A stretch of 64,000 nucleotides of DNA from a virus. The stretch covers positions 1 to 64,000 of IMG/VR virus record IMGVR_UViG_3300050821_006637. One strand, given 5' to 3'. The notes under the pieces were generated by a model. The model saw only the letters and a program-made list of their open reading frames with translations, was not told where the DNA came from and ran no database searches. This document shows positions 1,513 through 56,548 of this stretch, piece by piece. Every line of letters starts with the position of its first letter. The stretch's first letter is position 1. The translations under genes were made by a program, and so were the position numbers.

Positions 1513-4500
1513 ATGCAGTCGCCATTTCTATTAGTTGGTAATCCTGTAGTAGGGGCGTCTGGTCCTGCTCCTATCTTGAATGGTTTTACGATTAATGGAG
1601 ACCCTTCAACTGCGACGGCGGCTCCTGGTGTCAATATGACACTGGATTGGGATGTTAGTGGAGCGACGAATGTTCAACTCACTACGGGAAGCAATTATGC
1701 TTGGTCTAATTGGTCTGCCACAGGCACTACTTCTGTAAATGCGAATGGCAGTAGAAACTTCTTCCTTCGTGCTAGTAGTGATGGAGGAGTTACTTGGCCT
1801 ACTTTCGCTGCTGTTCACTCTATTGTCACTCAAACTACTAGCGCTCCTAATCTCAGTGGTATAGGAAGATATGATAACTTCACCCGTGCCAATAGCTCTT
1901 CGTCTTTAGGTTCTCCGTCGGATGGAGGTTCTGCTTGGACTGCTTTGACTGGCACTTGGGGGATATCTAGTAACCAAGCTATTAATATCACAGGAGGAAC
2001 GAATAATATAGCGGTCTTATCTTCTACTTTTTCAGATGTATCTGCCACGTTCACGTTACCGACATATACTTTTGGTGTCACTCAAGTAGGAGTCGTAGTA
2101 AGAGCTAGTGACGCAAACAACTTTATCTTTCTTGAGGCAGCTCAGGGTATTTTCTTAAAGAAATATGTTGCTGGTAGTCTTAATCAAATCATCGCCACAG
2201 GTTCTCCCGCCAGTGGCGATAGGTATCAAATCGTCTGCATCGGCAGTACGATTACTTGTTATCAAAACGGAGTCCTTCTTTTCATTGTCACAGATTCTTT
2301 CAACCAAACAGCAACAAATCATGGATTATATGCAAATACGGATAATACGACACCTTTAACAGATTTCGCTGCCCTGGATGCCTCCAAGTGTTTAGACCCG
2401 CAACTCGCTATTCCAGACTTCTGTCTGAATCCGACGACACATAGCACTAAGACAGGAAGTTGGTTTGACTCTACGGTCTGGAGCGGAGGTTCCGTTCCTG
2501 GTTCCTCAGATGTTGCTGTAATACAGAATGGACACATTGTCACAGTAGATGGATTCTCCGACGTTCCTGTCAATGGGATAGGTGTCCAATCTGGTGGTTC
2601 TTTAGAATTTGCTACAAATGCCAAAGTCCGTCTAACTGCTTGTCAAGTCGTAGTCTATGATACAGATGGCTCGCACGGACAAGGTTATTTTGAGATAGGG
2701 AATAGTGGAAATCCTGTCAATCCAACATCCATCCAAGACCAGACAGCTTGTCTAGCATTAGCGAGTGCTCCTTATGCTCAAGCAGACTTCATGCACTGGG
2801 GAGCTGGTCTCTACGTCTTTGGAAAAGCTAGAACCTATGGACAACCCACTTCTCCTGGATACGTTCGTTTAGCCACGGCTCCTCAAGCAGGAGATAGAAC
2901 CCTTTCACTTTCTAGTCCTGTTACTGGTTGGACACAAGGAGACAGACTCTATATTCCGGATACCACCGCGAGGACGGATGCGGCTATCTATGACCCGACT
3001 AGCTACTATGATGTATTGATGTTAGAGGGCGTCTCTCCAAATGGGTTGACATTGACAGTTTCTACTATCACAGGAACTGGTCTGTACTATAGTCATCCAG
3101 GCTCATCTGTAGTAGACAACCCCGCAGCCCCGCCAGAGTATTTACCTCATGTAGTGAATATGAGTCGTTGGGCATCCATCCGAACAACAGACCCGACGGA
3201 CATTAATCGTCCTCATGTATTCTGTGGTAATCGGGCGGATGTTGATTTCGAGTATACGACATTCCACAGCACAGGGAGGGCGGCTCCGTTTCCCGGGGCA
3301 GGAGTGCAGTTTAATCGTCTGTGGGGTCCGTTCCCAGTACGGGCAGACGGGTATCAATTTTCCATCACAAATTGTTCTGTGCTAGACCCTTTTCCTGTCC
3401 CATCCTTAGATGCTGCTAGTGCTCGTTGGGGTATTGTAATTAGCGAATCTGGATGGGGATTAGTGCAGGATAATGTCGTCATCAATTGGGGAGGAGCTGG
3501 GATTACTCCTAGAAATGGCAATGAACGACAGAACACTGTCAATAGGAACTTTGTTGGCTTGATTCGAGGCAATGGAGACCGTTCCGATCAGACAGGCAAT
3601 CCAGCCAACAATGGGGCTTTCAATCATCCAGAGAATCAAGGTCCTGGGAACGGAGTGTGGTGCCGGAATGCTGACCAGATAGTCACTAACAATGTCGTCG
3701 CCGATTGTCGTTCTATCGGTTCATTCTATGCTTACAGCTTTTCCGTCACTCCATTGTCTGAGGGAGGGACGAATCAACTATCAGTACAGAAATACACCCC
3801 AGCATACCAAGGAGCAAATCCCTATTCTGGTAATCCAGCGGATATTTATACGGTATCTACCCCTTTTGGGACGAATTACTTTAGTCCTATAGGCATTCCA
3901 ATCCGTAATATTTCAAATAATGAAGGCTACTCTTCAACCAACTGCATGACGATTTGGTTCGTCCTGCCTTCTGACATCGTAACAGATGCATTTTCAGCCT
4001 CTCTGTATGGTTACTTTGTTCCTGGAGTTGGAGGTGCGGGGGCAAATGGAACGATTCAGAGTTTGACTGGGTGGACTCTCTATCAGTGGGGGATATTTCT
4101 CTACCCAACGACAAATGTAACGATAGATGGATGTATATTTAGAGGATGTGTAACAGATAACTCTCATCGTCCTCCACGCGGTATTCATTCGGATGACTAT
4201 TGTTCTTGGAATTTGACTGTTTCTAATTGTGATATACGAAATTTTGATGTGGGTTTGATTCCCGCTTATTTTGGACAATATGATATAACGTTCGAGGATT
4301 GCCATTTAGTCAACAAGGAGAACATTTTGATTCAACCACTGACGAGTTCCATTGGTTCCGTATTCACAACTGGGAATTGGGTGTTGAATGTCCCAAATCA
4401 ATTGCTTGGCGGTCCTCGTTCTTACGCTATCAATAATTGCACTTATGCCGTCTGGCCTGGATTTCCGTTAGTAACCATATACGGAAGTAATCAACCATTT

Positions 4501-4920
4501 GGTTCTACTGCTGGAGGTGTTTCTCTGGCTGGAGATGGTTGGACGTCCCCAGTTTCTATCGCTGTGACAGACCATCAAGGTGTGGCAAATGATGATTTTT
4601 CAATGTTCCTCTACACTACGGAACCAAATCGTCAATTATCTCCAAATTTCCCATCTAACTTCGTAGTAAGTGTCCCTCAGTTCAATCTTACGAATGCTCA
4701 ATCATATGATAAGTTTAATAATGACGGGACGATTAAAAAGATGGCAAGTAGACTAGCTATGAATACTCCTGGTTTGAGTTTTGTTGGTCAAATACGTCCT
4801 CCCCAGTGGGGGGTGAGACCAGATGTTTACGGATTCATAAGTGTGAATCCGGGACCTTATCCTACTCGCTATTCACCGGCTACATCCATGAGACGCTTAC
4901 ATACTACACGAGGGGTTTAG
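1513..4920 (+). CDS. Large tail spike/fibre with G8-like domain and beta-helix
   Basis: This is a 1135-residue virion-surface protein. Residues about 15-110 look like an Ig/fibronectin-type sandwich. Residues about 120-290 resemble a concanavalin/LamG-like jelly roll (opening YDNFTRANSSS). Residues about 310-410 match the G8 domain pattern (GSWFDSTVWSGGSVP, then GHIVTVDG), known from CEMIP-like and other extracellular carbohydrate-binding proteins. The rest, about 500-1060, is rich in Asn/Gly/Val turns typical of a right-handed beta-helix, as in phage depolymerase spikes. An AGGAG precedes the ATG. Glycan binding or cleavage is likely from the architecture, but no catalytic residues were identified. 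Confidence 0.75.
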   Translation: MQSPFLLVGNPVVGASGPAPILNGFTINGDPSTATAAPGVNMTLDWDVSGATNVQLTTGSNYAWSNWSATGTTSVNANGSRNFFLRASSDGGVTWPTFAAVHSIVTQTTSAPNLSGIGRYDNFTRANSSSSLGSPSDGGSAWTALTGTWGISSNQAINITGGTNNIAVLSSTFSDVSATFTLPTYTFGVTQVGVVVRASDANNFIFLEAAQGIFLKKYVAGSLNQIIATGSPASGDRYQIVCIGSTITCYQNGVLLFIVTDSFNQTATNHGLYANTDNTTPLTDFAALDASKCLDPQLAIPDFCLNPTTHSTKTGSWFDSTVWSGGSVPGSSDVAVIQNGHIVTVDGFSDVPVNGIGVQSGGSLEFATNAKVRLTACQVVVYDTDGSHGQGYFEIGNSGNPVNPTSIQDQTACLALASAPYAQADFMHWGAGLYVFGKARTYGQPTSPGYVRLATAPQAGDRTLSLSSPVTGWTQGDRLYIPDTTARTDAAIYDPTSYYDVLMLEGVSPNGLTLTVSTITGTGLYYSHPGSSVVDNPAAPPEYLPHVVNMSRWASIRTTDPTDINRPHVFCGNRADVDFEYTTFHSTGRAAPFPGAGVQFNRLWGPFPVRADGYQFSITNCSVLDPFPVPSLDAASARWGIVISESGWGLVQDNVVINWGGAGITPRNGNERQNTVNRNFVGLIRGNGDRSDQTGNPANNGAFNHPENQGPGNGVWCRNADQIVTNNVVADCRSIGSFYAYSFSVTPLSEGGTNQLSVQKYTPAYQGANPYSGNPADIYTVSTPFGTNYFSPIGIPIRNISNNEGYSSTNCMTIWFVLPSDIVTDAFSASLYGYFVPGVGGAGANGTIQSLTGWTLYQWGIFLYPTTNVTIDGCIFRGCVTDNSHRPPRGIHSDDYCSWNLTVSNCDIRNFDVGLIPAYFGQYDITFEDCHLVNKENILIQPLTSSIGSVFTTGNWVLNVPNQLLGGPRSYAINNCTYAVWPGFPLVTIYGSNQPFGSTAGGVSLAGDGWTSPVSIAVTDHQGVANDDFSMFLYTTEPNRQLSPNFPSNFVVSVPQFNLTNAQSYDKFNNDGTIKKMASRLAMNTPGLSFVGQIRPPQWGVRPDVYGFISVNPGPYPTRYSPATSMRRLHTTRGV

Positions 4921-18852: not shown

Positions 18853-19959
18853 ATGCGAATAGCAGTTATCTCCTCATCCGTCTTTCCTGTTGGTGGGCAT
18901 CAAGGACTTCCGGGATATGGAGGATTGGAATCGATTGCCTGGTGGTGTGCTCGGGGTCTCGCTGCGAAGGGACACGACGTCACCCTCATCGCTCCACAAG
19001 GTTCGACGTGTCCTGGTGTGGAAGTTTTTGAATGTCTTCCTCCTGGTGGCTTTGCAGAGCAGCATCATTATGGAGGATGTGTCTATAATGATGCCAACGG
19101 ACAGCCTATTCAGTGGGCTGGGTACTGGCAGAAACTTTTAGAACTACAGGAGAAGGGTGACTTCGTAATTCTCGACCATAGTTGGAATAAGATGAGTGCC
19201 CTCTTAAAGATGGAGGGACGTCTTTCCAAGACGCCTATCCTTGGCGTCTGTCATGCTCCTGTGTCAACAATGTACTCTTCTCTCCCCCCAGAAGGCATAG
19301 TCTCTTTCGTGTGCATCTCAGATGACCAGAAGGCACACTTTGAGGCACTCCACTCTCCGAGGACTGCTCGTCGTGTCTATAACGGAATAGACTTGGATTT
19401 CTATCGTCCTATAGAGACACCCGGGAGTGATAGATACTTATTTCTGGCGAGATTTAGTTCAATAAAAGGACCGGACATCTGTCTTAAGGTGTGTAATGAA
19501 GCAGATGTTGGATTGGATTTAATAGGGGATTCAACGATTACCCAAGAGCCTCAGTATTACAATTATTGTTGCTCTTTGGCAGATGGTGTAAAGAGGAGAG
19601 TAGTGGGAAGCGTGCCTAGAGGTGAGGCTGTCTGGTGGTACTCCCAAGCTAGGGGGTTCCTCCACCCAATAGGAAATAGATTCCGAGAACCATTTGGTCT
19701 AGCACCAGTAGAAGCCCAAGCGTGTGGTTGCCCAGTCTTGTCTTTTAATTTTGGAGCACTACGGGAGACTGTCAAGCACGGAGAAACAGGCTTCTTAGTT
19801 AAGACGGAAAAGGAGATGTTAGAGGTGATTAAAAGCAGTGCTTTGGATAGTTTGAGCAGACAAAGATGCCGAGAATGGGCATCCCAGTTTTCCATTCAAA
19901 ATATGATTCTCGGATATGAGAATCTGTGCCAAAGAGCCTTAGATGGGGAGGTTTGGTAA
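18853..19959 (+). CDS. Glycosyltransferase, GT-B (GT4-like)
   Basis: This 368-residue protein starts MRIAVISSSVFPVGGHQG, the usual N-terminal Rossmann strand and Gly-rich loop. The second domain has FLARFSSIKGPD, and a C-terminal motif near FREPFGLAPVEAQACGCPVLSFNFG holds the conserved E-x7-E pattern of GT4 donor-site enzymes (about residues 280-300). It probably transfers a hexose from a nucleotide sugar in the cytoplasm. The start at ATG 18853 is preferred over an upstream in-frame start. It overlaps the next gene by TAATG. Confidence 0.8.
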   Translation: MRIAVISSSVFPVGGHQGLPGYGGLESIAWWCARGLAAKGHDVTLIAPQGSTCPGVEVFECLPPGGFAEQHHYGGCVYNDANGQPIQWAGYWQKLLELQEKGDFVILDHSWNKMSALLKMEGRLSKTPILGVCHAPVSTMYSSLPPEGIVSFVCISDDQKAHFEALHSPRTARRVYNGIDLDFYRPIETPGSDRYLFLARFSSIKGPDICLKVCNEADVGLDLIGDSTITQEPQYYNYCCSLADGVKRRVVGSVPRGEAVWWYSQARGFLHPIGNRFREPFGLAPVEAQACGCPVLSFNFGALRETVKHGETGFLVKTEKEMLEVIKSSALDSLSRQRCREWASQFSIQNMILGYENLCQRALDGEVW

Positions 19960-20153
19960 TGACGGAATCTCAACTTGAATACACTACGATGTCCGACACT
20001 CCTTTCACAGAGGAGAAAAAGATACTAAGGATTAGAAATTGTGAAAAGAAGCAATATTTGGAAATAGAGGAACAGGATGTAGAGAATCTTGTTTATAGTC
20101 TCAGGGAAGTATTCCCTGGCAAGTGGTGGGGGACGTGGGATGAAAACTATTGA
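19959..20153 (+). CDS. Small hypothetical protein
   Basis: This 64-residue acidic protein starts at a TAATG overlap with the glycosyltransferase. A beta-strand pair (KKILRIRNCEKKQYLEIEE) is followed by a short helix. The family is not recognised. It overlaps the next gene by 14 bases. Confidence 0.4.
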   Translation: MTESQLEYTTMSDTPFTEEKKILRIRNCEKKQYLEIEEQDVENLVYSLREVFPGKWWGTWDENY

Positions 20154-20373
20154 TGAAATTGCCGATAAGTTAGAAGTCGTCGTCATAGAGTTGGAACGGC
20201 GGTACACCGAAGCTAGAGGAATAGAAGTGACTGAACTCCCACCAGAGAAACTTTCTCCCTATTGCTTCTGTGCTGGAATGCTCTTCGCCTTTGGTTGGTT
20301 GATGGAGGATGAGAAAGTTGACCCTCTTATCCAGGCTATCGGACTTACGGATTTGATGGAGAAGTTCAAATAA
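20140..20373 (+). CDS. Hypothetical protein
   Basis: This 77-residue protein starts at the ATG at 20140, after a purine-rich GGGGGACGTGGG. The N-terminal helix (MKTIDEIADKLEVVVIELERRY) and an EALLQ-type C-terminal helix suggest a small helical bundle. A Cys pair (YCFCAGM) is present. The stop overlaps the next ATG. Confidence 0.4.
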   Translation: MKTIDEIADKLEVVVIELERRYTEARGIEVTELPPEKLSPYCFCAGMLFAFGWLMEDEKVDPLIQAIGLTDLMEKFK

Positions 20374-20552
20374 TGAAGAAGGTGCGATTGAATAGAATGG
20401 AAATGGAAGCTGTTAAGACGGCACTTCGTTTCTATAGTGAACATCTGCGAAAGCCGATAGAACCCTGTTCTGGGACTGCTATCCAATTAAGGACTTATGT
20501 GGTAGACCCCCTCCTCCGAAAACTTGAGGATTTGTTTAAAGATGACAGATGA
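20373..20552 (+). CDS. Small helical protein (59 residues)
   Basis: This short gene begins at a TAATG overlap and starts MKKVRLNRMEMEAVKTALRF. It is mostly helical with a single Cys. The tight coupling on both sides supports it as real. The family is not recognised. Confidence 0.5.
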   Translation: MKKVRLNRMEMEAVKTALRFYSEHLRKPIEPCSGTAIQLRTYVVDPLLRKLEDLFKDDR

Positions 20553-20958
20553 CGATTTAGTAGACCTTGTCTTCGTCACTACGAACCAAAACTTCCTTCC
20601 TGTCATCCTCCACAGAAAGATGGCGAGTGAGATTATTATGAACTGGTTTGAGGAGAGGGAACGAGTAAGGAGTAAAAGATTCCTTCCTCTCCTCTGGTTC
20701 CGTGCTTTCTGTTCTTGGCTAAGACCTTCTACGGCGATTTATAGTGAACACAATAGAGAGACGAATGAATCTTTCGTCTTCTGGGCAGTTGATACTAAAG
20801 AGGTCATCGGTATGTATGTGAGGGAGAGGGAACCCTCTCCTCATCAACTTTTAGCAGAAAGTCAAAAACGGATTGCCGATGCGATTGAGAATCAAGGAAA
20901 GAAGTTAGATGAAGGTGACGAGTGGAAGAATGGAGGAGGAGAAGAGGATGACAGTTAA
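20542..20958 (+). CDS. Hypothetical protein
   Basis: This 138-residue protein starts at ATG 20542; an in-frame TTG earlier is less likely. It is mixed alpha/beta with a short hydrophobic stretch (RFLPLLWFRAFCSWL) that is not clearly a membrane segment. The C-terminal third is charged, with Gln/Lys/Glu and a Gly-rich end. No motif is recognised. It overlaps both neighbours. Confidence 0.45.
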   Translation: MTDDDLVDLVFVTTNQNFLPVILHRKMASEIIMNWFEERERVRSKRFLPLLWFRAFCSWLRPSTAIYSEHNRETNESFVFWAVDTKEVIGMYVREREPSPHQLLAESQKRIADAIENQGKKLDEGDEWKNGGGEEDDS

Positions 20959-21160
20959 AGACTTAATCGTGCAGTTGCAGTATCTAGACCCAGATGCTCT
21001 GGTCGTCATTCGGGAATCCGTTGGTGGGGAGTGGTGGTATTGGAATGCAGCAAGAGCCACTATAGGAATGGATGTCCGTGTCCGTTCTGTGAATAGACCC
21101 GACAATGCACAGGGTCCGTTTCGTGTTGTTTATCTAACTTTGGACAAGAAGGAGAATTGA
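20948..21160 (+). CDS. Small phage protein ('DPDA' type)
   Basis: This 70-residue protein starts MTVKDLIVQLQYLDPDALVVIR. The helix-DPDA-strand opening is a pattern common to small phage and prophage proteins of unknown function. The ATG is preceded by GAGGAGGAGAAGAG, a strong ribosome site. The architecture resembles the gene at 13945. Function unknown. Confidence 0.55.
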   Translation: MTVKDLIVQLQYLDPDALVVIRESVGGEWWYWNAARATIGMDVRVRSVNRPDNAQGPFRVVYLTLDKKEN

Positions 21161-21162
21161 AG

Positions 21163-21465
21163 ATGGCTAGAACGAATCTTAAGTACACGAAAAGATACAC
21201 GATGAGGAATGACCTCGTTCTTCTGCGAAGGACGATAGAAAAGGTCGGCGGTCTGGTTATGCCAGATTTGGCGAGTGAAGGAAAAATCTATACCGTCATC
21301 GGTATGGGTCCAAAAGTCGAGAATCTAGAAATTGGAGACGTCATCCTCCTTTTCGCAGAAAAGGGTGACCCATTCTTCAATATCCCAGAAGAAGAGGATT
21401 TGCTATCCGTCCGAGAAAAGAACATCGGTTGCGTGGTAACGAAGCACCTGGCAGAAGAGGAATAG
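21163..21465 (+). CDS. GroES-like co-chaperonin
   Basis: This 100-residue protein fits the chaperonin-10 fold: NDLVLLRRTIEK, then GGLVMPD (the mobile-loop region), then SEGKIYTVIGMGPKVENLEIGDVILLF, and an EEDLLSVREKNIGCVV end. These follow the order of GroES strands, including the dome-base GDxVL motif. Phage T4 gp31 is the known precedent, replacing host GroES for capsid folding. The giant capsid-related proteins here could be clients. GGAGA lies 7 bases before the ATG. Confidence 0.7.
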   Translation: MARTNLKYTKRYTMRNDLVLLRRTIEKVGGLVMPDLASEGKIYTVIGMGPKVENLEIGDVILLFAEKGDPFFNIPEEEDLLSVREKNIGCVVTKHLAEEE

Positions 21466-21470
21466 AAGTA

Positions 21471-21683
21471 ATGGCTGCGGACACTGGATTTATTTACTTT
21501 TATACAGATAGTAGGAGTGGTTCTAACTCTTTTCAAGAGATTTGGAAGACGGATGAGGAAGCCAAGGTATGGGCGAAAGGATTGCGGGAGACCTGTTCCC
21601 CTGCACCAGAAAGTTATTTATTGACTACGCCAGCAGAGGACTTCCAAATCAGAGTAGTAGATGGGGTTAGAAAGGCTTCCTAA
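21471..21683 (+). CDS. Small hypothetical protein
   Basis: This 70-residue protein starts at ATG 21471, after GAGGAAT. It has an aromatic strand (GFIYFYTDSRSG) and helix (QEIWKTDEEAKVWAKGL), then a strand pair. It resembles small phage accessory proteins, but no family is named. It precedes the broken lipoprotein gene. Confidence 0.4.
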   Translation: MAADTGFIYFYTDSRSGSNSFQEIWKTDEEAKVWAKGLRETCSPAPESYLLTTPAEDFQIRVVDGVRKAS

Positions 21684-21725
21684 ATGTCTTCCTTGCATGT
21701 TGAGAGTGGAATTGGAGAAGTGGGT

Positions 21726-21978
21726 ATGAGAATTTTATTCTCTTCTGTTCTCTTCTGTTCTCTTCGTTTGTCTGGGGTGTGCTTCCAATGTTAAGAAAGA
21801 CATCCCTGTGGTTGAGGTTGATATAATGAACAAGGAAGCGGAGAAATCACAGCAAAGAGGTTTGATGAAACGAGTCAAGGATTTAGAGGAAGAAGACTCA
21901 GATAAGAATGTATTGATACAGCAATTGCAGCAGGCTGTTGGTGATTTGCAGGTTCGGGTTGGAAATTTGGAGAAGTAG
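21726..21978 (+). pseudogene. Frameshifted lipoprotein with coiled coil
   Basis: The ATG at 21726 opens MRILFSSVLF, then stops after about 22 codons. The frame one base on encodes VCLGCASNVKKD and a charged coiled coil to the TAG at 21976-21978. Joining the two frames gives a signal peptide with a lipobox-like LGC-A and a ~65-residue mature part. The break lies in a 10-base tandem repeat (21739-21765). Removing one unit restores a continuous frame, so the gene may be switched by slippage. A spanin-like or surface lipoprotein is possible. The -3 residue is Cys, not the usual Leu. Confidence 0.65.
21739..21765 (+). repeat. 10-base tandem repeat, 2.7 units (TCTCTTCTGT)
   Basis: TCTCTTCTGT occurs twice in tandem, followed by TCTCTTC. 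The unit length is not a multiple of three, so each gain or loss shifts the reading frame of the signal-peptide segment. At this copy number the lipoprotein is out of frame; one unit fewer or two more would put it in frame. Confidence 0.85.
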
Positions 21979-23091
21979 ATGAGCCTCCTCTTTCTTACCG
22001 CAGATGAACTCGGTTCCTGGACAGGAGGTTCGACAGTCGCTAGCCAGGAATGCTTGGCGCTTAAGGAGTTCGCTGACCAGTCTGTCCGCCAGAGGAGAGA
22101 CGCCACGCTATCCTCTGTCAAAGTGTTGAGCAGAAGGGAATTGGGTTCCACTTTAGAGGAGCCATGGAAGTGGGATGAGGTAGCATTGAAGAGGTTAGAT
22201 GAGACGGCTACCATCCCACGTCTCTGTCACGTCTATTCTGGCACGTTTTCTAAAACCATCAAATGGTTGAAGGAACAGGGGACGAAGGTCACTTGGACGA
22301 TTGCTGCCCATGACGTCGCCATCTCCAAGCGAGAACACGAAAAGTTAGGATTGCCGTTTCCTTATCTCCATCTCACAGAAAAGGCTTTGTGGAAAAGATA
22401 TATCTCGGGCTACGCGATGGCAGATGTGATTATCTGCCCTGGTTTGGAACCAGCAGGGGTCGTAAGGAGATATGGGGAGGAATTCTTACAGAAAAGAATA
22501 GAAATCATCCCTCACGGATGTCATCTACCAGAGGAGATAAAGCCTCTCCCAAAGACTTTTGTTGTAGGGTACTGCGGTGCCATTTGCGGCGGCGACAAGG
22601 GGGTTAGATACTTACTTGAGGCGTGGAAGCGGCTTAACTACACCGACGGCTCTCTGTTAGTCATAGCGGGCAAAGATAGCGTTTCTCCGTGGACTCGTCA
22701 TCTGTTGAATACCTATGGAGGGGGTTCGGTTCACTTGGCAGGATGGCAGAAAGACATGAGTGATTTTTATAATTCTATTTCTTTATTCGTCTGTCCCGCA
22801 GCGACGGAAGGCTTTAATTTAGAAGTAGTTGAGAGTCTTGCTCATGGTCGTTCTGTTCTCTGTTCGAAGAATGCTGGAGCAGCGGATTTGACGCCAGAAG
22901 GTTGGCGGGTTCCTGCGTGTGATGTGGATGCTTTGGTGGATAGGATAAGGATGGCTAGAAACGCAGTAGAAAGTTCTTATAGTTTTGATTGGCAGGGAAG
23001 TTGGAAAGAAAGAGCAGTAGATTACACTTGGGAGAAAGTCCGCGGAATGTACAAATCCCTTTGGACGGAGGTCTTATATGGAAAAGAGTAA
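21979..23091 (+). CDS. Glycosyltransferase, GT-B (GT4-like)
   Basis: This is a 370-residue protein. The N-terminal domain is divergent (LLFLTADELGSWTGGST). The C-terminal domain has FVVGYCGAICGGDKGVRYLLEAW and an acidic E-x7-E motif around AATEGFNLEVVESLAHGRSVLCS (about residues 270-290), as in GT4 enzymes. It begins one base after the lipoprotein stop. It is the third glycosyltransferase of the region. With the dehydrogenase and radical SAM genes it suggests assembly of a modified sugar or glycan. Confidence 0.75.
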   Translation: MSLLFLTADELGSWTGGSTVASQECLALKEFADQSVRQRRDATLSSVKVLSRRELGSTLEEPWKWDEVALKRLDETATIPRLCHVYSGTFSKTIKWLKEQGTKVTWTIAAHDVAISKREHEKLGLPFPYLHLTEKALWKRYISGYAMADVIICPGLEPAGVVRRYGEEFLQKRIEIIPHGCHLPEEIKPLPKTFVVGYCGAICGGDKGVRYLLEAWKRLNYTDGSLLVIAGKDSVSPWTRHLLNTYGGGSVHLAGWQKDMSDFYNSISLFVCPAATEGFNLEVVESLAHGRSVLCSKNAGAADLTPEGWRVPACDVDALVDRIRMARNAVESSYSFDWQGSWKERAVDYTWEKVRGMYKSLWTEVLYGKE

Positions 23092-25389: not shown

Positions 25390-26108
25390 CTTTTCCAAGA
25401 ACCAGTAATCCCTTGGTTTCTGTCCTCCTTCCCACTAGAGGACGAAGTGAATGGTTATTGAAGTCCGTAGATAGTTTGCATAGTCAAGCCGTCCACAAGG
25501 ATAAGATAGAATATCTCTTTCGTGCCGACCCAGATGACTTGGAAACGATTTCTACTTGTTCTAGGTTAGTCAATACTCTCCCCAATGCGGTTCTTAATGT
25601 AGAGCCACGGGGAAGAGGTTATTTGGATATGCACTTTTGGATTTCCAAACTCGCTAGCATGGCTCGCGGAGATTGGCTACTAATTTGGAATGATGATGCG
25701 ATGATGAAGACACCCCATTGGGATGACCTGTTGCTCAATGGCTCTGTTCAATGTTGGCACAAGTGCCCAGATGTTTATATGTATGTCTTACCGAGTAGAG
25801 GGCGTCCTGGTTGTTATGAGTTCATGTTTCTTCGTCGTTCGGTGACACAGATACTCGGGCACTGGTCTCTTTCTCCACATAATGACAATTGGATAATGCG
25901 GGTGATGTTAGGAGTGAATTCTGTCTGTGGTATACCGATAGAAGTAGACCATTTAAGTGATAGGATGACAGATAAGATTAGGGAGGAGACTGTCGCTGCC
26001 TATGGAGATGGACAATTGGCGAGGGAAACTTTGGAATCTCCGTGGGCGCAGAAGGCTATAGAAGAAGATATTAGGAAGTTAGCAGAGCACATTCAAAAAA
26101 ATGTCTAA
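25368..26108 (+). CDS. Glycosyltransferase, GT-A (GT2-like)
   Basis: This 246-residue protein starts with a short lead and then PLVSVLLPTRGRSEWLLKS, the classic GT2 N-terminus. The donor-metal motif appears as LIWNDDAMM (about residue 107). A later VDHLSDRMTDK region may hold the catalytic base. It is slightly shorter than most GT2 enzymes, with no membrane segment, so it should be cytoplasmic. It is adjacent to the radical SAM and dehydrogenase genes. Confidence 0.7.
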   Translation: MHEAHQLTFPRTSNPLVSVLLPTRGRSEWLLKSVDSLHSQAVHKDKIEYLFRADPDDLETISTCSRLVNTLPNAVLNVEPRGRGYLDMHFWISKLASMARGDWLLIWNDDAMMKTPHWDDLLLNGSVQCWHKCPDVYMYVLPSRGRPGCYEFMFLRRSVTQILGHWSLSPHNDNWIMRVMLGVNSVCGIPIEVDHLSDRMTDKIREETVAAYGDGQLARETLESPWAQKAIEEDIRKLAEHIQKNV

Positions 26109-27900
26109 GCTCAAATTAGCTCTGGCACAATTTGGAAACTCCTACGGAGGACAGCAGGCGTTGCCCTTGAGCGTAGGGTGTCTGTGGTCTTACGCCAAGA
26201 AGGAAGGTTTGAGCACGGAATATGAAAATCCTGTCTTCCTATACAAAAAGGAAGCAGTTTCCAAGGTAGTGGCTAGAATACCTGAGGATGTAGATATAGT
26301 AGCCTTTTCGGCTTATATTTGGAACTGGAGGTTTTCAAGGGCTGTAGCGGAGGCGATTCTTGAAAAGTCACCCAAAGCGGCTATCGTCTATGGCGGCGTT
26401 CATGTACCAGACTCACCGACAGAGGAGTGGTGGCAACAACATATAGAATGTGACTATGTGCTGCGAGGAGAGGGGGAACTCTCCTTTGCTTCTTTTCTAC
26501 AACAATTCGCAGCAAAGGATTCACAGAGAGACTGGAGCAAGGTGCCAGGGCTGTCCATACGGGGATTAAATACAGAGAGGAAACAACCACCAGTAAATGA
26601 TTTAACTAGTCCCTATTTGGACGGAACGTTTGACAGTCTTCTTCCCTTGGAAGAGAAATGGACAGGCTTGCAAGAATCCGATCGTGGATGTCCCTACTTT
26701 TGTTCTTTCTGTATGTGGGGCGATTCTGCTCTCAACAAAATACGCCAGTTTCCTATGAATAGAGTAACGGAAGAGATAACTTGGTTCGGCAAGAATCGTG
26801 TGGAATTTGTTGAGGGAGCGAATGCTAACTTTGGAATCTTACCCAGGGATGTACAGATAGCCGAGCACCTGGCTAAGACGAAAGAGAAGTACGGATTCCC
26901 ACAGAAATACAGAGCCGCCTTCGCCAAGTATTCCAATAAGAGAATAATGGACCAAGTCTTTTCTGTCGCCTCTATTCTCAATAAGAGCGGACAACTCAAA
27001 GCCGTCACCCTCGCTCTGCAAAGTACAGATGATGGAGTATTGGAATCTATTGATAGAAAAAACATCTCAATGTCTGGTTTCCAAGAGTTGCAGGAAAGAT
27101 ATAAGAAAGATGGAATCCCCACTTATATAGAATTAATCATGGGTCTGCCTGGGGAAACTTACTCCTCCTTCAAGGCAGGTATAGATAAAATCCTCAATGC
27201 AGGAGGACATGAAGGACTCTCTATCTACCAGTGTGTGATTCTTCCTAATTCTGAGATGGACAACCCAGAATATATTAAGAAGCACGGGCTCCAATCTGTC
27301 CCTATGCGGGCGATGCTCCTCCACGGAACTCCAAATAAAGAGTGTCCAGATGAGGTGCAGGAGACTGTCATCGCCACGAATTCTATGCCACACGAGGATT
27401 GGAAGAAGACGTGGTTTCTGTCCTGGGCTTTACAGACCTTTCACTCTACTCACTTAACCCAGTGGTGGGCAAAGGAGCAGAGTGCCCTTGGCACGCCCTA
27501 TTCGTGCTTCTACGAGCGTTTGATAAGGACAGCCGAGCAGTGGCCCGAGTCGGTGCTCGGGCGTGTCTATGCCCATACCAGTGCGTTGCTTGAGGCGGCG
27601 ATTCAAGGAGGTAGTTGGGACAACGTCCTTCCTGGATTTGGGGACATAAGTTGGCCTCCGGACGAGGGAGCCTTCCTTATGATTGCCAAAGAACTCCATC
27701 TATTCTACAGCCAGATGAAACTTCTAAAAGATATGCCTGTCCAGCAGTGGGAATATGGACCTCCCGAGATTCCCCAAGGGAAGGAAGAGGCATATGGAAA
27801 GGTATTCTGGTACTCACGTAAAGGTGACTTGATTGGAAGTTTGAGAAAGTTCATTGAGGAATGTAAAGAGGAAAGTAAGAGGAGACTCTGTGATGACTAA
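26101..27900 (+). CDS. Radical SAM enzyme with B12-binding-like domain
   Basis: This is a 599-residue protein. The N-terminal ~150 residues fit a cobalamin-binding (Rossmann) domain (GGQQALPLSVGCLWSYAKKEG, then VYGGVHVPDSPTEEWW). The radical SAM core follows with C197-x3-C201-x2-C204 (RGCPYFCSFC) and a GxPGET-type motif in IMGLPGETYSSF. B12-dependent radical SAM enzymes often methylate or rearrange unreactive carbons. The neighbours suggest a sugar or lipid-linked substrate, but that is inference. It overlaps its neighbours by 8 bases on each side. Confidence 0.8.
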   Translation: MSKLKLALAQFGNSYGGQQALPLSVGCLWSYAKKEGLSTEYENPVFLYKKEAVSKVVARIPEDVDIVAFSAYIWNWRFSRAVAEAILEKSPKAAIVYGGVHVPDSPTEEWWQQHIECDYVLRGEGELSFASFLQQFAAKDSQRDWSKVPGLSIRGLNTERKQPPVNDLTSPYLDGTFDSLLPLEEKWTGLQESDRGCPYFCSFCMWGDSALNKIRQFPMNRVTEEITWFGKNRVEFVEGANANFGILPRDVQIAEHLAKTKEKYGFPQKYRAAFAKYSNKRIMDQVFSVASILNKSGQLKAVTLALQSTDDGVLESIDRKNISMSGFQELQERYKKDGIPTYIELIMGLPGETYSSFKAGIDKILNAGGHEGLSIYQCVILPNSEMDNPEYIKKHGLQSVPMRAMLLHGTPNKECPDEVQETVIATNSMPHEDWKKTWFLSWALQTFHSTHLTQWWAKEQSALGTPYSCFYERLIRTAEQWPESVLGRVYAHTSALLEAAIQGGSWDNVLPGFGDISWPPDEGAFLMIAKELHLFYSQMKLLKDMPVQQWEYGPPEIPQGKEEAYGKVFWYSRKGDLIGSLRKFIEECKEESKRRLCDD

Positions 27901-29614
27901 ACCGATTATCGGGTTCCTTGGCGTCGGCAAATTAGGTTTGCCTCTGGCTGTCTCTATCGCTATGAAGGGACACAAGGTTCTGGCTTATGATGTGAATCCA
28001 GGCTTGATGAAGAAGCAAATCTGGCCTCATAGAGAGACTGGACCCGACGGAACTGGAGACTTCCAACCTTACTTGGATTCTGCAGATATTACTTTCTGTC
28101 CGTTAAAAGAGGTCGTGCAGGGAAGTGACATTATTTTCTTGTGTGTGCAGACGCCACACGGAGCGGAATATGAAGGCATTACGAGGTTGCCGTTTTCTAG
28201 GGCAGACTTTGACTATAAGTATCTAAGAGAAGTCGCCCAGCAGGTATCTGAGTATGTTACGCCTCAACAAGCTGTATCTGTCATCTCTACGGTACTTCCA
28301 GGTACGATGAGGAGAGAAGTTCTTCCCTTTTTGCCAGAGGCAGTCTATAATCCTGCTTTCCCTGCTATGGGGACTGTGATGAGGGATTTTTTAGAGCCGG
28401 AGTTCATCCTCTTGGGTGGGACACCTGGTCCGTCTGTCACAAAGCTCAAGGACTTCTATTTCCATCTACTCAATAGGTTCTGTACTGTGATAAGTATTGA
28501 AAGTGCAGAATTGTCCAAGTGTGCGTACAATACTTTCGTATCTATGAAAGTGACAGTCACCAATATGCTGGCAGAGGTAGCCCATAAGATACCTGGGTGC
28601 AATATAGATGAAGTGAGTAGGGTTCTCACGTCTGCGACGAGGAGGGTTTGTTCTCCTGCTTATATGCAAGGAGGGATGGGAGACGGCGGAGCGTGTCTAG
28701 CAAAAGGAACCCTTGTTCGGGTACGAGACGGATGGAAAGTAATAGAACAGATACAGCCTGGGGAGTGGGTTCTGGGTCTAAATGAGAAGACAAATGAGCC
28801 AGCTTGGAATTGTGTGGAAAAGGCTATCTGTAAGGGTAAACAGCAAGTCCTTCGTGTCAAGTTTGACGACACGGAAGTGAAAGCCACACCAGACCATAAG
28901 TTCTTTGTCTCTCTGGGTGCTGCTCCCCATAATTGGATGAAATTGGAGGATACAATCACCAGGAAGAATGTCGGTGGGCAATATGTAGAAGGACACCGAT
29001 TTTTGGGGATTAGATTGCTGGATGAACGTCCGTTTCTAATTGAATCTTGCTCTATGAAAAATGACGTGACAGCGGAGGTGTGGGATTTGTATAATGCATG
29101 TCCCCATCATAACTTCTATGCCAATGGTATCTTAGTTTCAAATTGTCATCCCAGAGACAATATCGCTATGTCCTGGCTCGCAGAAAAGTTGAAACTTTCT
29201 TCTAATCTTTTTGACAAAGTGATGGAAGCCAGAGAATGGCAGACGGAGTGGTTGGCAGACCTTTTCTGTACACACGGAAAAGATATGCCGAAGTATCTCC
29301 TCGGCAAAGCCTACAAAGCCGATAGTGCTATCGTTGCTGGTTCTGCATCTGTCCTCCTTGCCAACATCCTCTACGAAAGACAAATAGACTTCGCACATTG
29401 GGACCCCTATATTGACATAGATGACGAGGATGAGGTAGGGGAGTTCCCAGTTAAGAATCCCTTTGCAGAAGAGAAAGCGTGCTTCTTCATCGGCACACAG
29501 CATTCTATCTTTCGAGAATATAAGTATGCTCCAGGTTCTGTGATTTTAGACCCATTTAGATATATCCCAGAACAACCAGGAGTAAAGATAATACCAATAG
29601 GAGTAGGGAGATGA
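27893..29614 (+). CDS. UDP-glucose/nucleotide-sugar dehydrogenase with mini-intein
   Basis: The primary product is 573 residues, spliced about 423, which matches UGDH family size. The N-terminal NAD domain has FLGVGKLGLPLA. The central domain includes SKCAYNTFVSMKVT. The catalytic motif reads GGA-C-HPRD after splicing, equal to the family GGxCxPKD with the active-site Cys. The C-terminal domain is complete (KAYKADSAIVAGS). It probably oxidises a UDP-sugar to a uronic acid, giving a charged donor for the local glycosyltransferases. The start at ATG 27893 overlaps the radical SAM gene. Confidence 0.8.
   Translation: MTKPIIGFLGVGKLGLPLAVSIAMKGHKVLAYDVNPGLMKKQIWPHRETGPDGTGDFQPYLDSADITFCPLKEVVQGSDIIFLCVQTPHGAEYEGITRLPFSRADFDYKYLREVAQQVSEYVTPQQAVSVISTVLPGTMRREVLPFLPEAVYNPAFPAMGTVMRDFLEPEFILLGGTPGPSVTKLKDFYFHLLNRFCTVISIESAELSKCAYNTFVSMKVTVTNMLAEVAHKIPGCNIDEVSRVLTSATRRVCSPAYMQGGMGDGGACLAKGTLVRVRDGWKVIEQIQPGEWVLGLNEKTNEPAWNCVEKAICKGKQQVLRVKFDDTEVKATPDHKFFVSLGAAPHNWMKLEDTITRKNVGGQYVEGHRFLGIRLLDERPFLIESCSMKNDVTAEVWDLYNACPHHNFYANGILVSNCHPRDNIAMSWLAEKLKLSSNLFDKVMEAREWQTEWLADLFCTHGKDMPKYLLGKAYKADSAIVAGSASVLLANILYERQIDFAHWDPYIDIDDEDEVGEFPVKNPFAEEKACFFIGTQHSIFREYKYAPGSVILDPFRYIPEQPGVKIIPIGVGR
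28694..29143 (+). mobile_element. Mini-intein at the dehydrogenase catalytic cysteine
   Basis: This 150-residue intein has no endonuclease. Block A is CLAKGTLVRVRDG, block B is ATPDHKFF (TxxH), and the C-terminal blocks include VWDLYNACPHHNFYANGILVSN, then extein Cys. Cys1, the block-B His, terminal Asn and +1 Cys are all present, so it should splice. The penultimate residue is Ser rather than the usual His, a variation seen in some active inteins. The +1 residue is the enzyme's catalytic nucleophile. Confidence 0.85.
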
Positions 29615-55081: not shown

Positions 55082-56548
55082 ATGGCTGCTCCTACTTTTG
55101 AGACGGTAGCCCTGGCCACCCAGCAGAACGGCGAGGCTATCCAGTCGTTGAATAAAACCCTCGGGACTGTTGTTGATAAACTCTCCCGTATGCCAATGCC
55201 CGGACAACCGACGCCGGAACAAGCATTCGGTACTCCTTGGATTCGTAATGGTGAGAGTTCTTTGGATGACTCCAGAGGCTTCTCCTACCTCAAAATGATT
55301 GGGCACATCGCTGGCTTCGTCCCAGACGAGCAGTGCAAGCATGAGCGGAACCTCGCCATGAGAATGGCGAAGTGCCTCTATGCGGATGCTGGCAACGACG
55401 GCTATCAGTGGGCTTCTCAGAATCGCCTTGGTGAGAAGAAATTCCTCGCTCCACTCGCTCCTAACTTCCTCCAGGACAACTTCGTTGACCGGAGCTTCCG
55501 TCGTGAGATGAAGCAGATGGTCGCCGCAGGGACGGACGGAGCCGACCTGGGAGAAGCGAGCTGGATTAAGCGAAAGATGCTTTCCCAGCAATATGGGACG
55601 AAAGCCCTTTCTTGGTTGAATGAACTCACTGGTGGTGCTATCGTCGCTCCGCCTGAGATGGGTGAGTTGATTGAACTTCTGAGAAATAAAGAGGCTCTGG
55701 TCAATGCAGGAGCCAGAGTTGTTCCTCTACCTCCACAGGGTAGATTAAAGTATCCTCGCCAGACTTCTCCATCCAATACCTTCTGGGTTGGTGAGAACTC
55801 TCCTATCACAGAATCCATCGTCGGTACTGGTGAGATTACTCTGCAAGCTAAGAAGCTCGCAGTCCTCATCAAGGCACCGAACGAGTTGATTCGTTTTGCC
55901 TCACCTGCGGCAGAGGCGTTGCTCCGAGACGATATGACGAAGAGTTTGGCTCTTGGTTTGGATTTGGCTGGATTAGAGGGACAGGGGAGTGACGTCAAGC
56001 CTCGCGGTGTGATTAACTATCCTGGAATCAACAGAATCCAGTCCTCTCAGATTGGTGTTAACTCTGGTGGTGTGGTAGTTGGACAGGACATCTACCGAAT
56101 GATTGCTGCGGTAGAGGAAAGTGACGCGGAGTTCGAAGCGTACATCATGCGTCCGAAGACTCTGTATAAGTATTATCAGCTGCGAGCTGATGCCGTCGTG
56201 GCGGGTGATGCGGCTGGTCCGTATCTGTTCAACCTGATTAGAGAGGCACAGGATGACACGCCCGCTTCGTTGGCTGGTTATCCCGTGGTGAAGTCGACTC
56301 AGGTTTCTCAGACTCGTTCCTATGCGGCTGCGACAAATCTGACCTATGTGGTTGGTGGAATGTGGAGTGATATGCTCATCGGTATGTTCGGTGCGATTGA
56401 GTTCGCGGCGACCACGATGGGTGACACCGCTTTCGTCAATGACCAGACGTGGGTGCGTGGTATTCTGTCGGCGGACGTGCAGTTGAGGCACGAGGCGGCG
56501 TTCGTTTTACTTGACAATCTCAACACTCTAGTTACGGCGGCAAGCTAA
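55082..56548 (+). CDS. HK97-fold major capsid protein
   Basis: This 488-residue protein follows the usual HK97 order. A helical N-terminal delta-like region (about 1-90) is followed by the E-loop area around PLPPQGRLKYPRQ with WVGENSPITES (about 220-245). The long spine helix is near LLRDDMTKSLALGLD, then GSDVKPRGVINY (A-domain). The final strand region has FAATTMGDTAF and VRGILSADVQLRHEAAF. The position after the protease confirms the role. It would form the icosahedral shell. Cleavage of the N-terminal part by the protease is expected. The ribosome site is the purine-rich AAGAGAAGAAG. Confidence 0.9.
   Translation: MAAPTFETVALATQQNGEAIQSLNKTLGTVVDKLSRMPMPGQPTPEQAFGTPWIRNGESSLDDSRGFSYLKMIGHIAGFVPDEQCKHERNLAMRMAKCLYADAGNDGYQWASQNRLGEKKFLAPLAPNFLQDNFVDRSFRREMKQMVAAGTDGADLGEASWIKRKMLSQQYGTKALSWLNELTGGAIVAPPEMGELIELLRNKEALVNAGARVVPLPPQGRLKYPRQTSPSNTFWVGENSPITESIVGTGEITLQAKKLAVLIKAPNELIRFASPAAEALLRDDMTKSLALGLDLAGLEGQGSDVKPRGVINYPGINRIQSSQIGVNSGGVVVGQDIYRMIAAVEESDAEFEAYIMRPKTLYKYYQLRADAVVAGDAAGPYLFNLIREAQDDTPASLAGYPVVKSTQVSQTRSYAAATNLTYVVGGMWSDMLIGMFGAIEFAATTMGDTAFVNDQTWVRGILSADVQLRHEAAFVLLDNLNTLVTAAS

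What the first reader, a model, noticed from the sequence alone, without database searches (positions are those of the whole stretch)
21726..21978. Lipoprotein gene switched by a 10-base tandem repeat
The ATG frame is out of step with a downstream frame that encodes LGC-A and a coiled coil. The only difference is in the TCTCTTCTGT repeat (2.7 units at 21739-21765). Removing one 10-base unit gives a continuous signal peptide and lipobox-like site. Ten is not divisible by three, so slippage would turn the gene on or off. This may be phase variation of a surface or lysis lipoprotein in a phage.
Basis: seen in the sequence. Interest (0 to 1): 0.75.

Follow-up and report, generated by a model that had tools for sequence, protein, structure and literature searches.

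The report
Phage lipoprotein gene shifted by repeat
A small lipoprotein gene in an environmental phage is out of frame in this genome, most simply because one extra 10-base repeat unit lies in its signal peptide; that slippage could flip it back is plausible, but nothing available here shows that it does.

Summary
A perfect 28-base tandem repeat (2.8 units of 10) at 21738-21765 lies just after an ATG with a good ribosome site. That frame stops at 21794. The +1 frame (21730-21978) carries a hydrophobic segment, a CLGC-Ala lipobox-like site and a long helix, and its codon use is clearly coding. The repeat is unique in the 89-kb phage record, absent from 60 simulated genomes, and sits in the 62-base stretch where the two frames conflict. 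Apart from one conserved programmed frameshift elsewhere, the record's reading frames are clean, so generic indel error is unlikely. An extra 10-base unit is the best reason for the break. The claim that it is the only possible difference is too strong: a small indel anywhere in 21730-21791, or an internal start at 21826, also fits. Phase variation is untested. No relative or read covers the locus, 2.8 units is fewer than usual contingency loci have, and 625 kb from related phages shows only repeats with units divisible by three. The neighbours are glycosyltransferase and small accessory genes; no lysis gene was recognised nearby. Verdict: a real, frame-shifted accessory lipoprotein gene; a switch is possible, not shown.

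The parts
21714..21717 (+). Shine-Dalgarno GGAG, 8 bases before ATG 21726
   Evidence: read in sequence; spacing computed
21726..21794 (+). frame 0 from the best ATG: MRILFSSVLFCSLRLSGVCFQC, then stop (also open from ATG 21684)
21738..21765 (+). perfect tandem repeat, TTCTCTTCTG x 2.8, in the signal-peptide region
21730..21791 (+). zone where both frames are open; the frame change must lie here
21769..21780 (+). lipobox-like C-L-G-C in the +1 frame (candidate lipidated Cys 21778-21780)
   Evidence: translation; chance estimate
21781..21978 (+). mature part in the +1 frame; one long helix (residues 11-65 counted from the Cys, mean pLDDT 87 from a single sequence)
21814..21828 (+). possible internal start: GAGGT 7 bases before ATG 21826 (50-aa product without signal peptide)
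21979..23091 (+). glycosyltransferase gene starting right after the lipoprotein stop, with its own GGAG

Best explanation
21726-21978 is an accessory phage gene for a short lipoprotein: signal peptide, lipidated cysteine, then a membrane-tethered helical coiled coil. In the sampled genome, or in the assembly's majority allele, replication slippage has left one extra 10-base unit in the signal-peptide repeat. Translation from ATG 21726 therefore ends at 21794 and the lipoprotein is not made. Loss of a unit by slippage could restore it, but this is better seen as an ordinary slippage mutation at a repeat-prone signal-peptide sequence than as a shown switch. Shown: the repeat, the frame conflict, the coding signal. 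Inferred: lipidation, slippage as the cause, the off state. Not shown: reversibility.
For: The +1 frame is coding by codon use up to and across the lipobox. A good SD and ATG lie in the other frame. The unique, perfect, non-triplet repeat lies in the 62-base conflict zone; chance overlap of one such repeat with a 62-base stretch of 89 kb is about 0.001 (inference). A whole-record gene decode finds only one forced frameshift, at 67208, and that is a conserved programmed one. The stop of the coding frame abuts the next gene's start, a usual phage arrangement. The mature part is predicted as one confident helix.
Against: No homologue or second allele was found, so the intact form is hypothetical. 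The inferred signal peptide would be short (14 residues) and its lipobox has Cys rather than Leu/Val/Ile at -3 (general knowledge). Codon usage cannot place the frame change within the zone.
Confidence: 0.62

Rival explanations
1. True phase variation: the phage population keeps both unit numbers, and slippage switches a surface or exclusion lipoprotein on and off, as the CTCTT repeats do in the leader of Neisseria opa genes.
For: Non-triplet unit in the hydrophobic signal-peptide region, the same place and a similar pyrimidine-rich sequence as the opa CTCTT repeat (PMC5354566). It is the only such repeat in the phage.
Against: Only 2.8 units. A published screen required at least 3 copies for 6-9-base units and 5 for pentamers (PMC5953494). 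All perfect repeats with at least 15 matched bases in 625 kb of related phage DNA have units divisible by three. No second allele was found.
Confidence: 0.13
2. The gene simply starts at ATG 21826 (50-aa soluble coiled-coil protein), and the upstream signal-peptide-like stretch is a non-coding or decayed leader.
For: GAGGT 7 bases before ATG 21826; the gene decode chose this start.
Against: Codon use upstream of 21826 in the same frame is coding-like (only 1.5% of wrong-frame stretches reach it), and an out-of-frame lipobox signal peptide behind an SD-ATG is rare.
Confidence: 0.14
3. Sequencing or assembly error: a small indel in the zone, for instance at the T4 run 21733-21736 or the G4 run 21774-21777, or a miscounted repeat; the real genome has one frame.
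For: A small indel at either run would also join the frames; the version shifted near the ATG would keep a longer hydrophobic segment (translation).
Against: No other unexplained frame break on the forward strand of the record. A 28-base repeat is shorter than a short read.
Confidence: 0.09
4. Programmed +1 ribosomal frameshift (for example at GGG-G 21774-21777) makes the lipoprotein from the sequence as it stands.
For: GGGG allows re-pairing in the +1 frame; the join would read LSGC-A (inference from the sequence).
Against: It would put Arg just before the lipobox; +1 programmed sites are rare; no conservation can be shown, whereas the phage's other frameshift is a conserved -1 site.
Confidence: 0.02

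Closest known systems
Neisseria opa genes (CTCTT repeat in the leader peptide; PMC5354566)
   Same: Non-triplet pyrimidine-rich repeat within signal-peptide codons; unit change alters the frame
   Different: Opa proteins are outer-membrane proteins with many pentamer copies and shown variation; here 2.8 decamer copies, a phage lipoprotein, no shown variation
Small phage lipoproteins (superinfection-exclusion lipoproteins such as T5 Llp; o-spanins such as lambda Rz1) - from general knowledge
   Same: Short phage protein with signal peptide and lipobox
   Different: No sequence match; no lysis gene recognised nearby; coiled-coil body
Ordinary slippage frameshift mutation at a short direct repeat
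   Same: One tandem unit gained, frame lost
   Different: Nothing in the data excludes it; it is the default

Membership tests
Simple-sequence-repeat phase-variable (contingency) locus | Tandem repeat with a non-triplet unit inside the coding region or promoter | tested here: met
   21738-21765, unit 10
Simple-sequence-repeat phase-variable (contingency) locus | Enough units to be hypermutable | tested here: not met
   2.8 units; a published screen asks for at least 3 for 6-9-base units and 5 for pentamers (PMC5953494); 10-base units are not covered by that rule, so this is borderline
Simple-sequence-repeat phase-variable (contingency) locus | Unit number varies between reads or relatives | not testable with these tools
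   no reads held; no relative covers the locus
Bacterial-type lipoprotein | Positively charged start, hydrophobic stretch, lipobox ending in Cys | tested here: inconclusive
   Arg2, hydrophobic stretch and CLGC are present only across two frames; -3 is Cys rather than Leu/Val/Ile
Phage o-spanin / lysis lipoprotein | Next to or nested in an i-spanin or endolysin gene | tested here: not met
   neighbours are glycosyltransferases and unassigned small genes; no lysis family hit among the proteins scanned

The most novel reading that the evidence does not exclude
A virus of bacteria with an opa-like contingency locus: a decamer repeat in a signal peptide that switches a tethered coiled-coil lipoprotein between lipidated, absent and, through the internal start at 21826, soluble forms.
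Probability: 0.08. Interest if true: 0.65.

Novelty: new member of a known kind. Interest (0 to 1): 0.33.

Why it matters
If reads showed both unit numbers, it would be a phage gene switched by simple-repeat slippage, a mechanism described mostly for bacterial surface genes, and would suggest that the phage hedges a host-surface trait. As it stands it is a well-localised, testable frameshift allele in an otherwise clean phage record.

Tried and rejected
Protein-pattern scans with the joined lipoprotein: viral contigs, genome contigs, annotated phages: no relative. DNA patterns on both sides of the repeat in viral contigs: none. Scans with the glycosyltransferase, radical-SAM and UDP-glucose-dehydrogenase-like genes: none, or distant ones only. 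The major capsid protein gave related phages, and the flanking glycosyltransferase is conserved in six of them (45-52% identity), but the genes just upstream differ and none encodes this lipoprotein. So the gene is an accessory insertion, and comparison cannot settle the ancestral unit number. A lysis role was dropped for lack of any recognised lysis neighbour. A -1 programmed frameshift was dropped because the needed change is +1.

Full report
WHAT IT IS IN. The window is bases 1-64000 of an 89,066-base virus record. The phage has an HK97-type major capsid gene at 55082-56548 and no near match in annotated phages. Its capsid protein has relatives at 59-76% identity in many uncultivated virus contigs, one short contig at 98%, and two MAGs.

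OBSERVATION. The repeat TTCTCTTCTG x 2.8 is at 21738-21765 and is perfect. In the 89-kb record it is the only perfect tandem repeat with at least 17 matched bases, and 60 simulated order-3 Markov genomes contain none. The start ATG 21726 has GGAG 8 bases upstream; its frame stops at 21794. The +1 frame is open from 21730 to 21978 and reads EFYSLLFSSVLFVCLGCASNVKKDIPVVEVDIMNKEAEKSQQRGLMKRVKDLEEEDSDKNVLIQQLQQAVGDLQVRVGNLEK.

IS THE DOWNSTREAM FRAME REAL? Codon scores trained on the phage's own genes give +16.3 for 21766-21975. Real-frame stretches of this length have a median of +14.7, and the 99th percentile of stop-free wrong-frame stretches is +0.5. The 20 codons before the internal ATG 21826 score +3.7, close to the real-frame median of 4.2; 1.5% of wrong-frame stretches reach it. 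A hydrophobic stretch plus lipobox in the wrong frame behind an SD-ATG occurred at 1 of 2,197 such ATGs in related phages, and only here in this phage. The mature part is predicted as a single helix, mean pLDDT 87 from one sequence.

WHERE DOES THE FRAME CHANGE? It must lie in 21730-21791. Codon usage does not place it: all switch points within the zone score within about 4 log units. The repeat is the natural suspect because it is unique and its unit is not a multiple of three; chance overlap with a 62-base zone is about 0.001 (inference). Short homopolymers in the zone (T4 21733-21736, G4 21774-21777) are alternatives.

SEQUENCE QUALITY. A Viterbi decode of the forward strand finds one forced frameshift in the whole record, at 67208. 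That one is real biology: the gene has an A9 run at 67117-67125, and in nine relatives both halves are conserved with the same -1 offset and a run of As in the overlap. The broken frame at 21726-21978 is thus the only unexplained one seen, which argues against generic indel error. The decode itself did not force a frameshift at 21726-21978 either: it took the internal ATG 21826 instead, so the case for a break there rests.

RELATIVES. The glycosyltransferase just downstream has homologues in six related records (45-52% identity). Several of those records also carry a second glycosyltransferase just upstream with a variable set of small genes between the two; none of the small genes is this lipoprotein. 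In 625 kb of related sequence (a few stretches come from contigs linked only by a shared sugar gene) every perfect tandem repeat with at least 15 matched bases has a unit divisible by three, so these phages show no general habit of repeat-based switching. Scans for a second allele found nothing. No reads are available here.

MECHANISM. Most likely: gain of one repeat unit by slippage put the signal peptide out of frame with the mature protein; the sampled allele makes a 22-residue dead-end peptide. Reversion by loss of a unit is possible in principle, and a large phage population may hold both, but with 2.8 units the rate would be expected to be modest. In the off state an internal start at 21826 (GAGGT 7 bases upstream) might still give a soluble 50-residue coiled coil; this is a guess. 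The downstream glycosyltransferase has its own ribosome site.

COMPARISON. The architecture is like Neisseria opa, where CTCTT units in the leader peptide shift the frame (PMC5354566). Membership in the class of contingency loci is not established: the number of units is lower than one published screen asks for (PMC5953494), and variation could not be tested.

VERDICT. Observation confirmed, interpretation partly supported. A real, frame-shifted accessory lipoprotein gene; the switch is a hypothesis that read mapping could settle.

Noticed in passing
record position 67117-67125 (L002:3117-3125), gene 66731-67401: A9 run where a -1 frame continues the gene. In nine related phages the N-terminal half and the -1-frame C-terminal half are both conserved with the same offset and a run of As: a conserved programmed -1 frameshift, probably the tail-assembly chaperone.
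   Followed up: partly
window 18853-23091: Two glycosyltransferase genes bracket a variable set of small genes; in several related phages a similar pair brackets different small genes.
   Followed up: partly
window 21163-21465: 100-aa protein that reads like a GroES-type co-chaperonin but has no Pfam hit; homologues in two related records, in one of them directly before the glycosyltransferase.
   Followed up: partly
window 26101-29614: B12-binding radical-SAM protein followed by a protein with a UDP-glucose-dehydrogenase-like PHROG match: likely sugar or surface modification genes.
   Followed up: no
window 1513-4920: 1135-aa protein with G8 and CEMIP-type beta-helix domains, families known mainly from animals; probably a phage fibre or depolymerase.
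   Followed up: no
L059, L060: Related capsid genes sit in MAGs labelled Phycisphaerales and Candidatus Parcubacteria, a hint (binning may be wrong) at hosts.
   Followed up: no
L078:9211-9460: Dense hexamer-based TCCATA/TCCACT repeat array in a related phage record, all units divisible by three.
   Followed up: no
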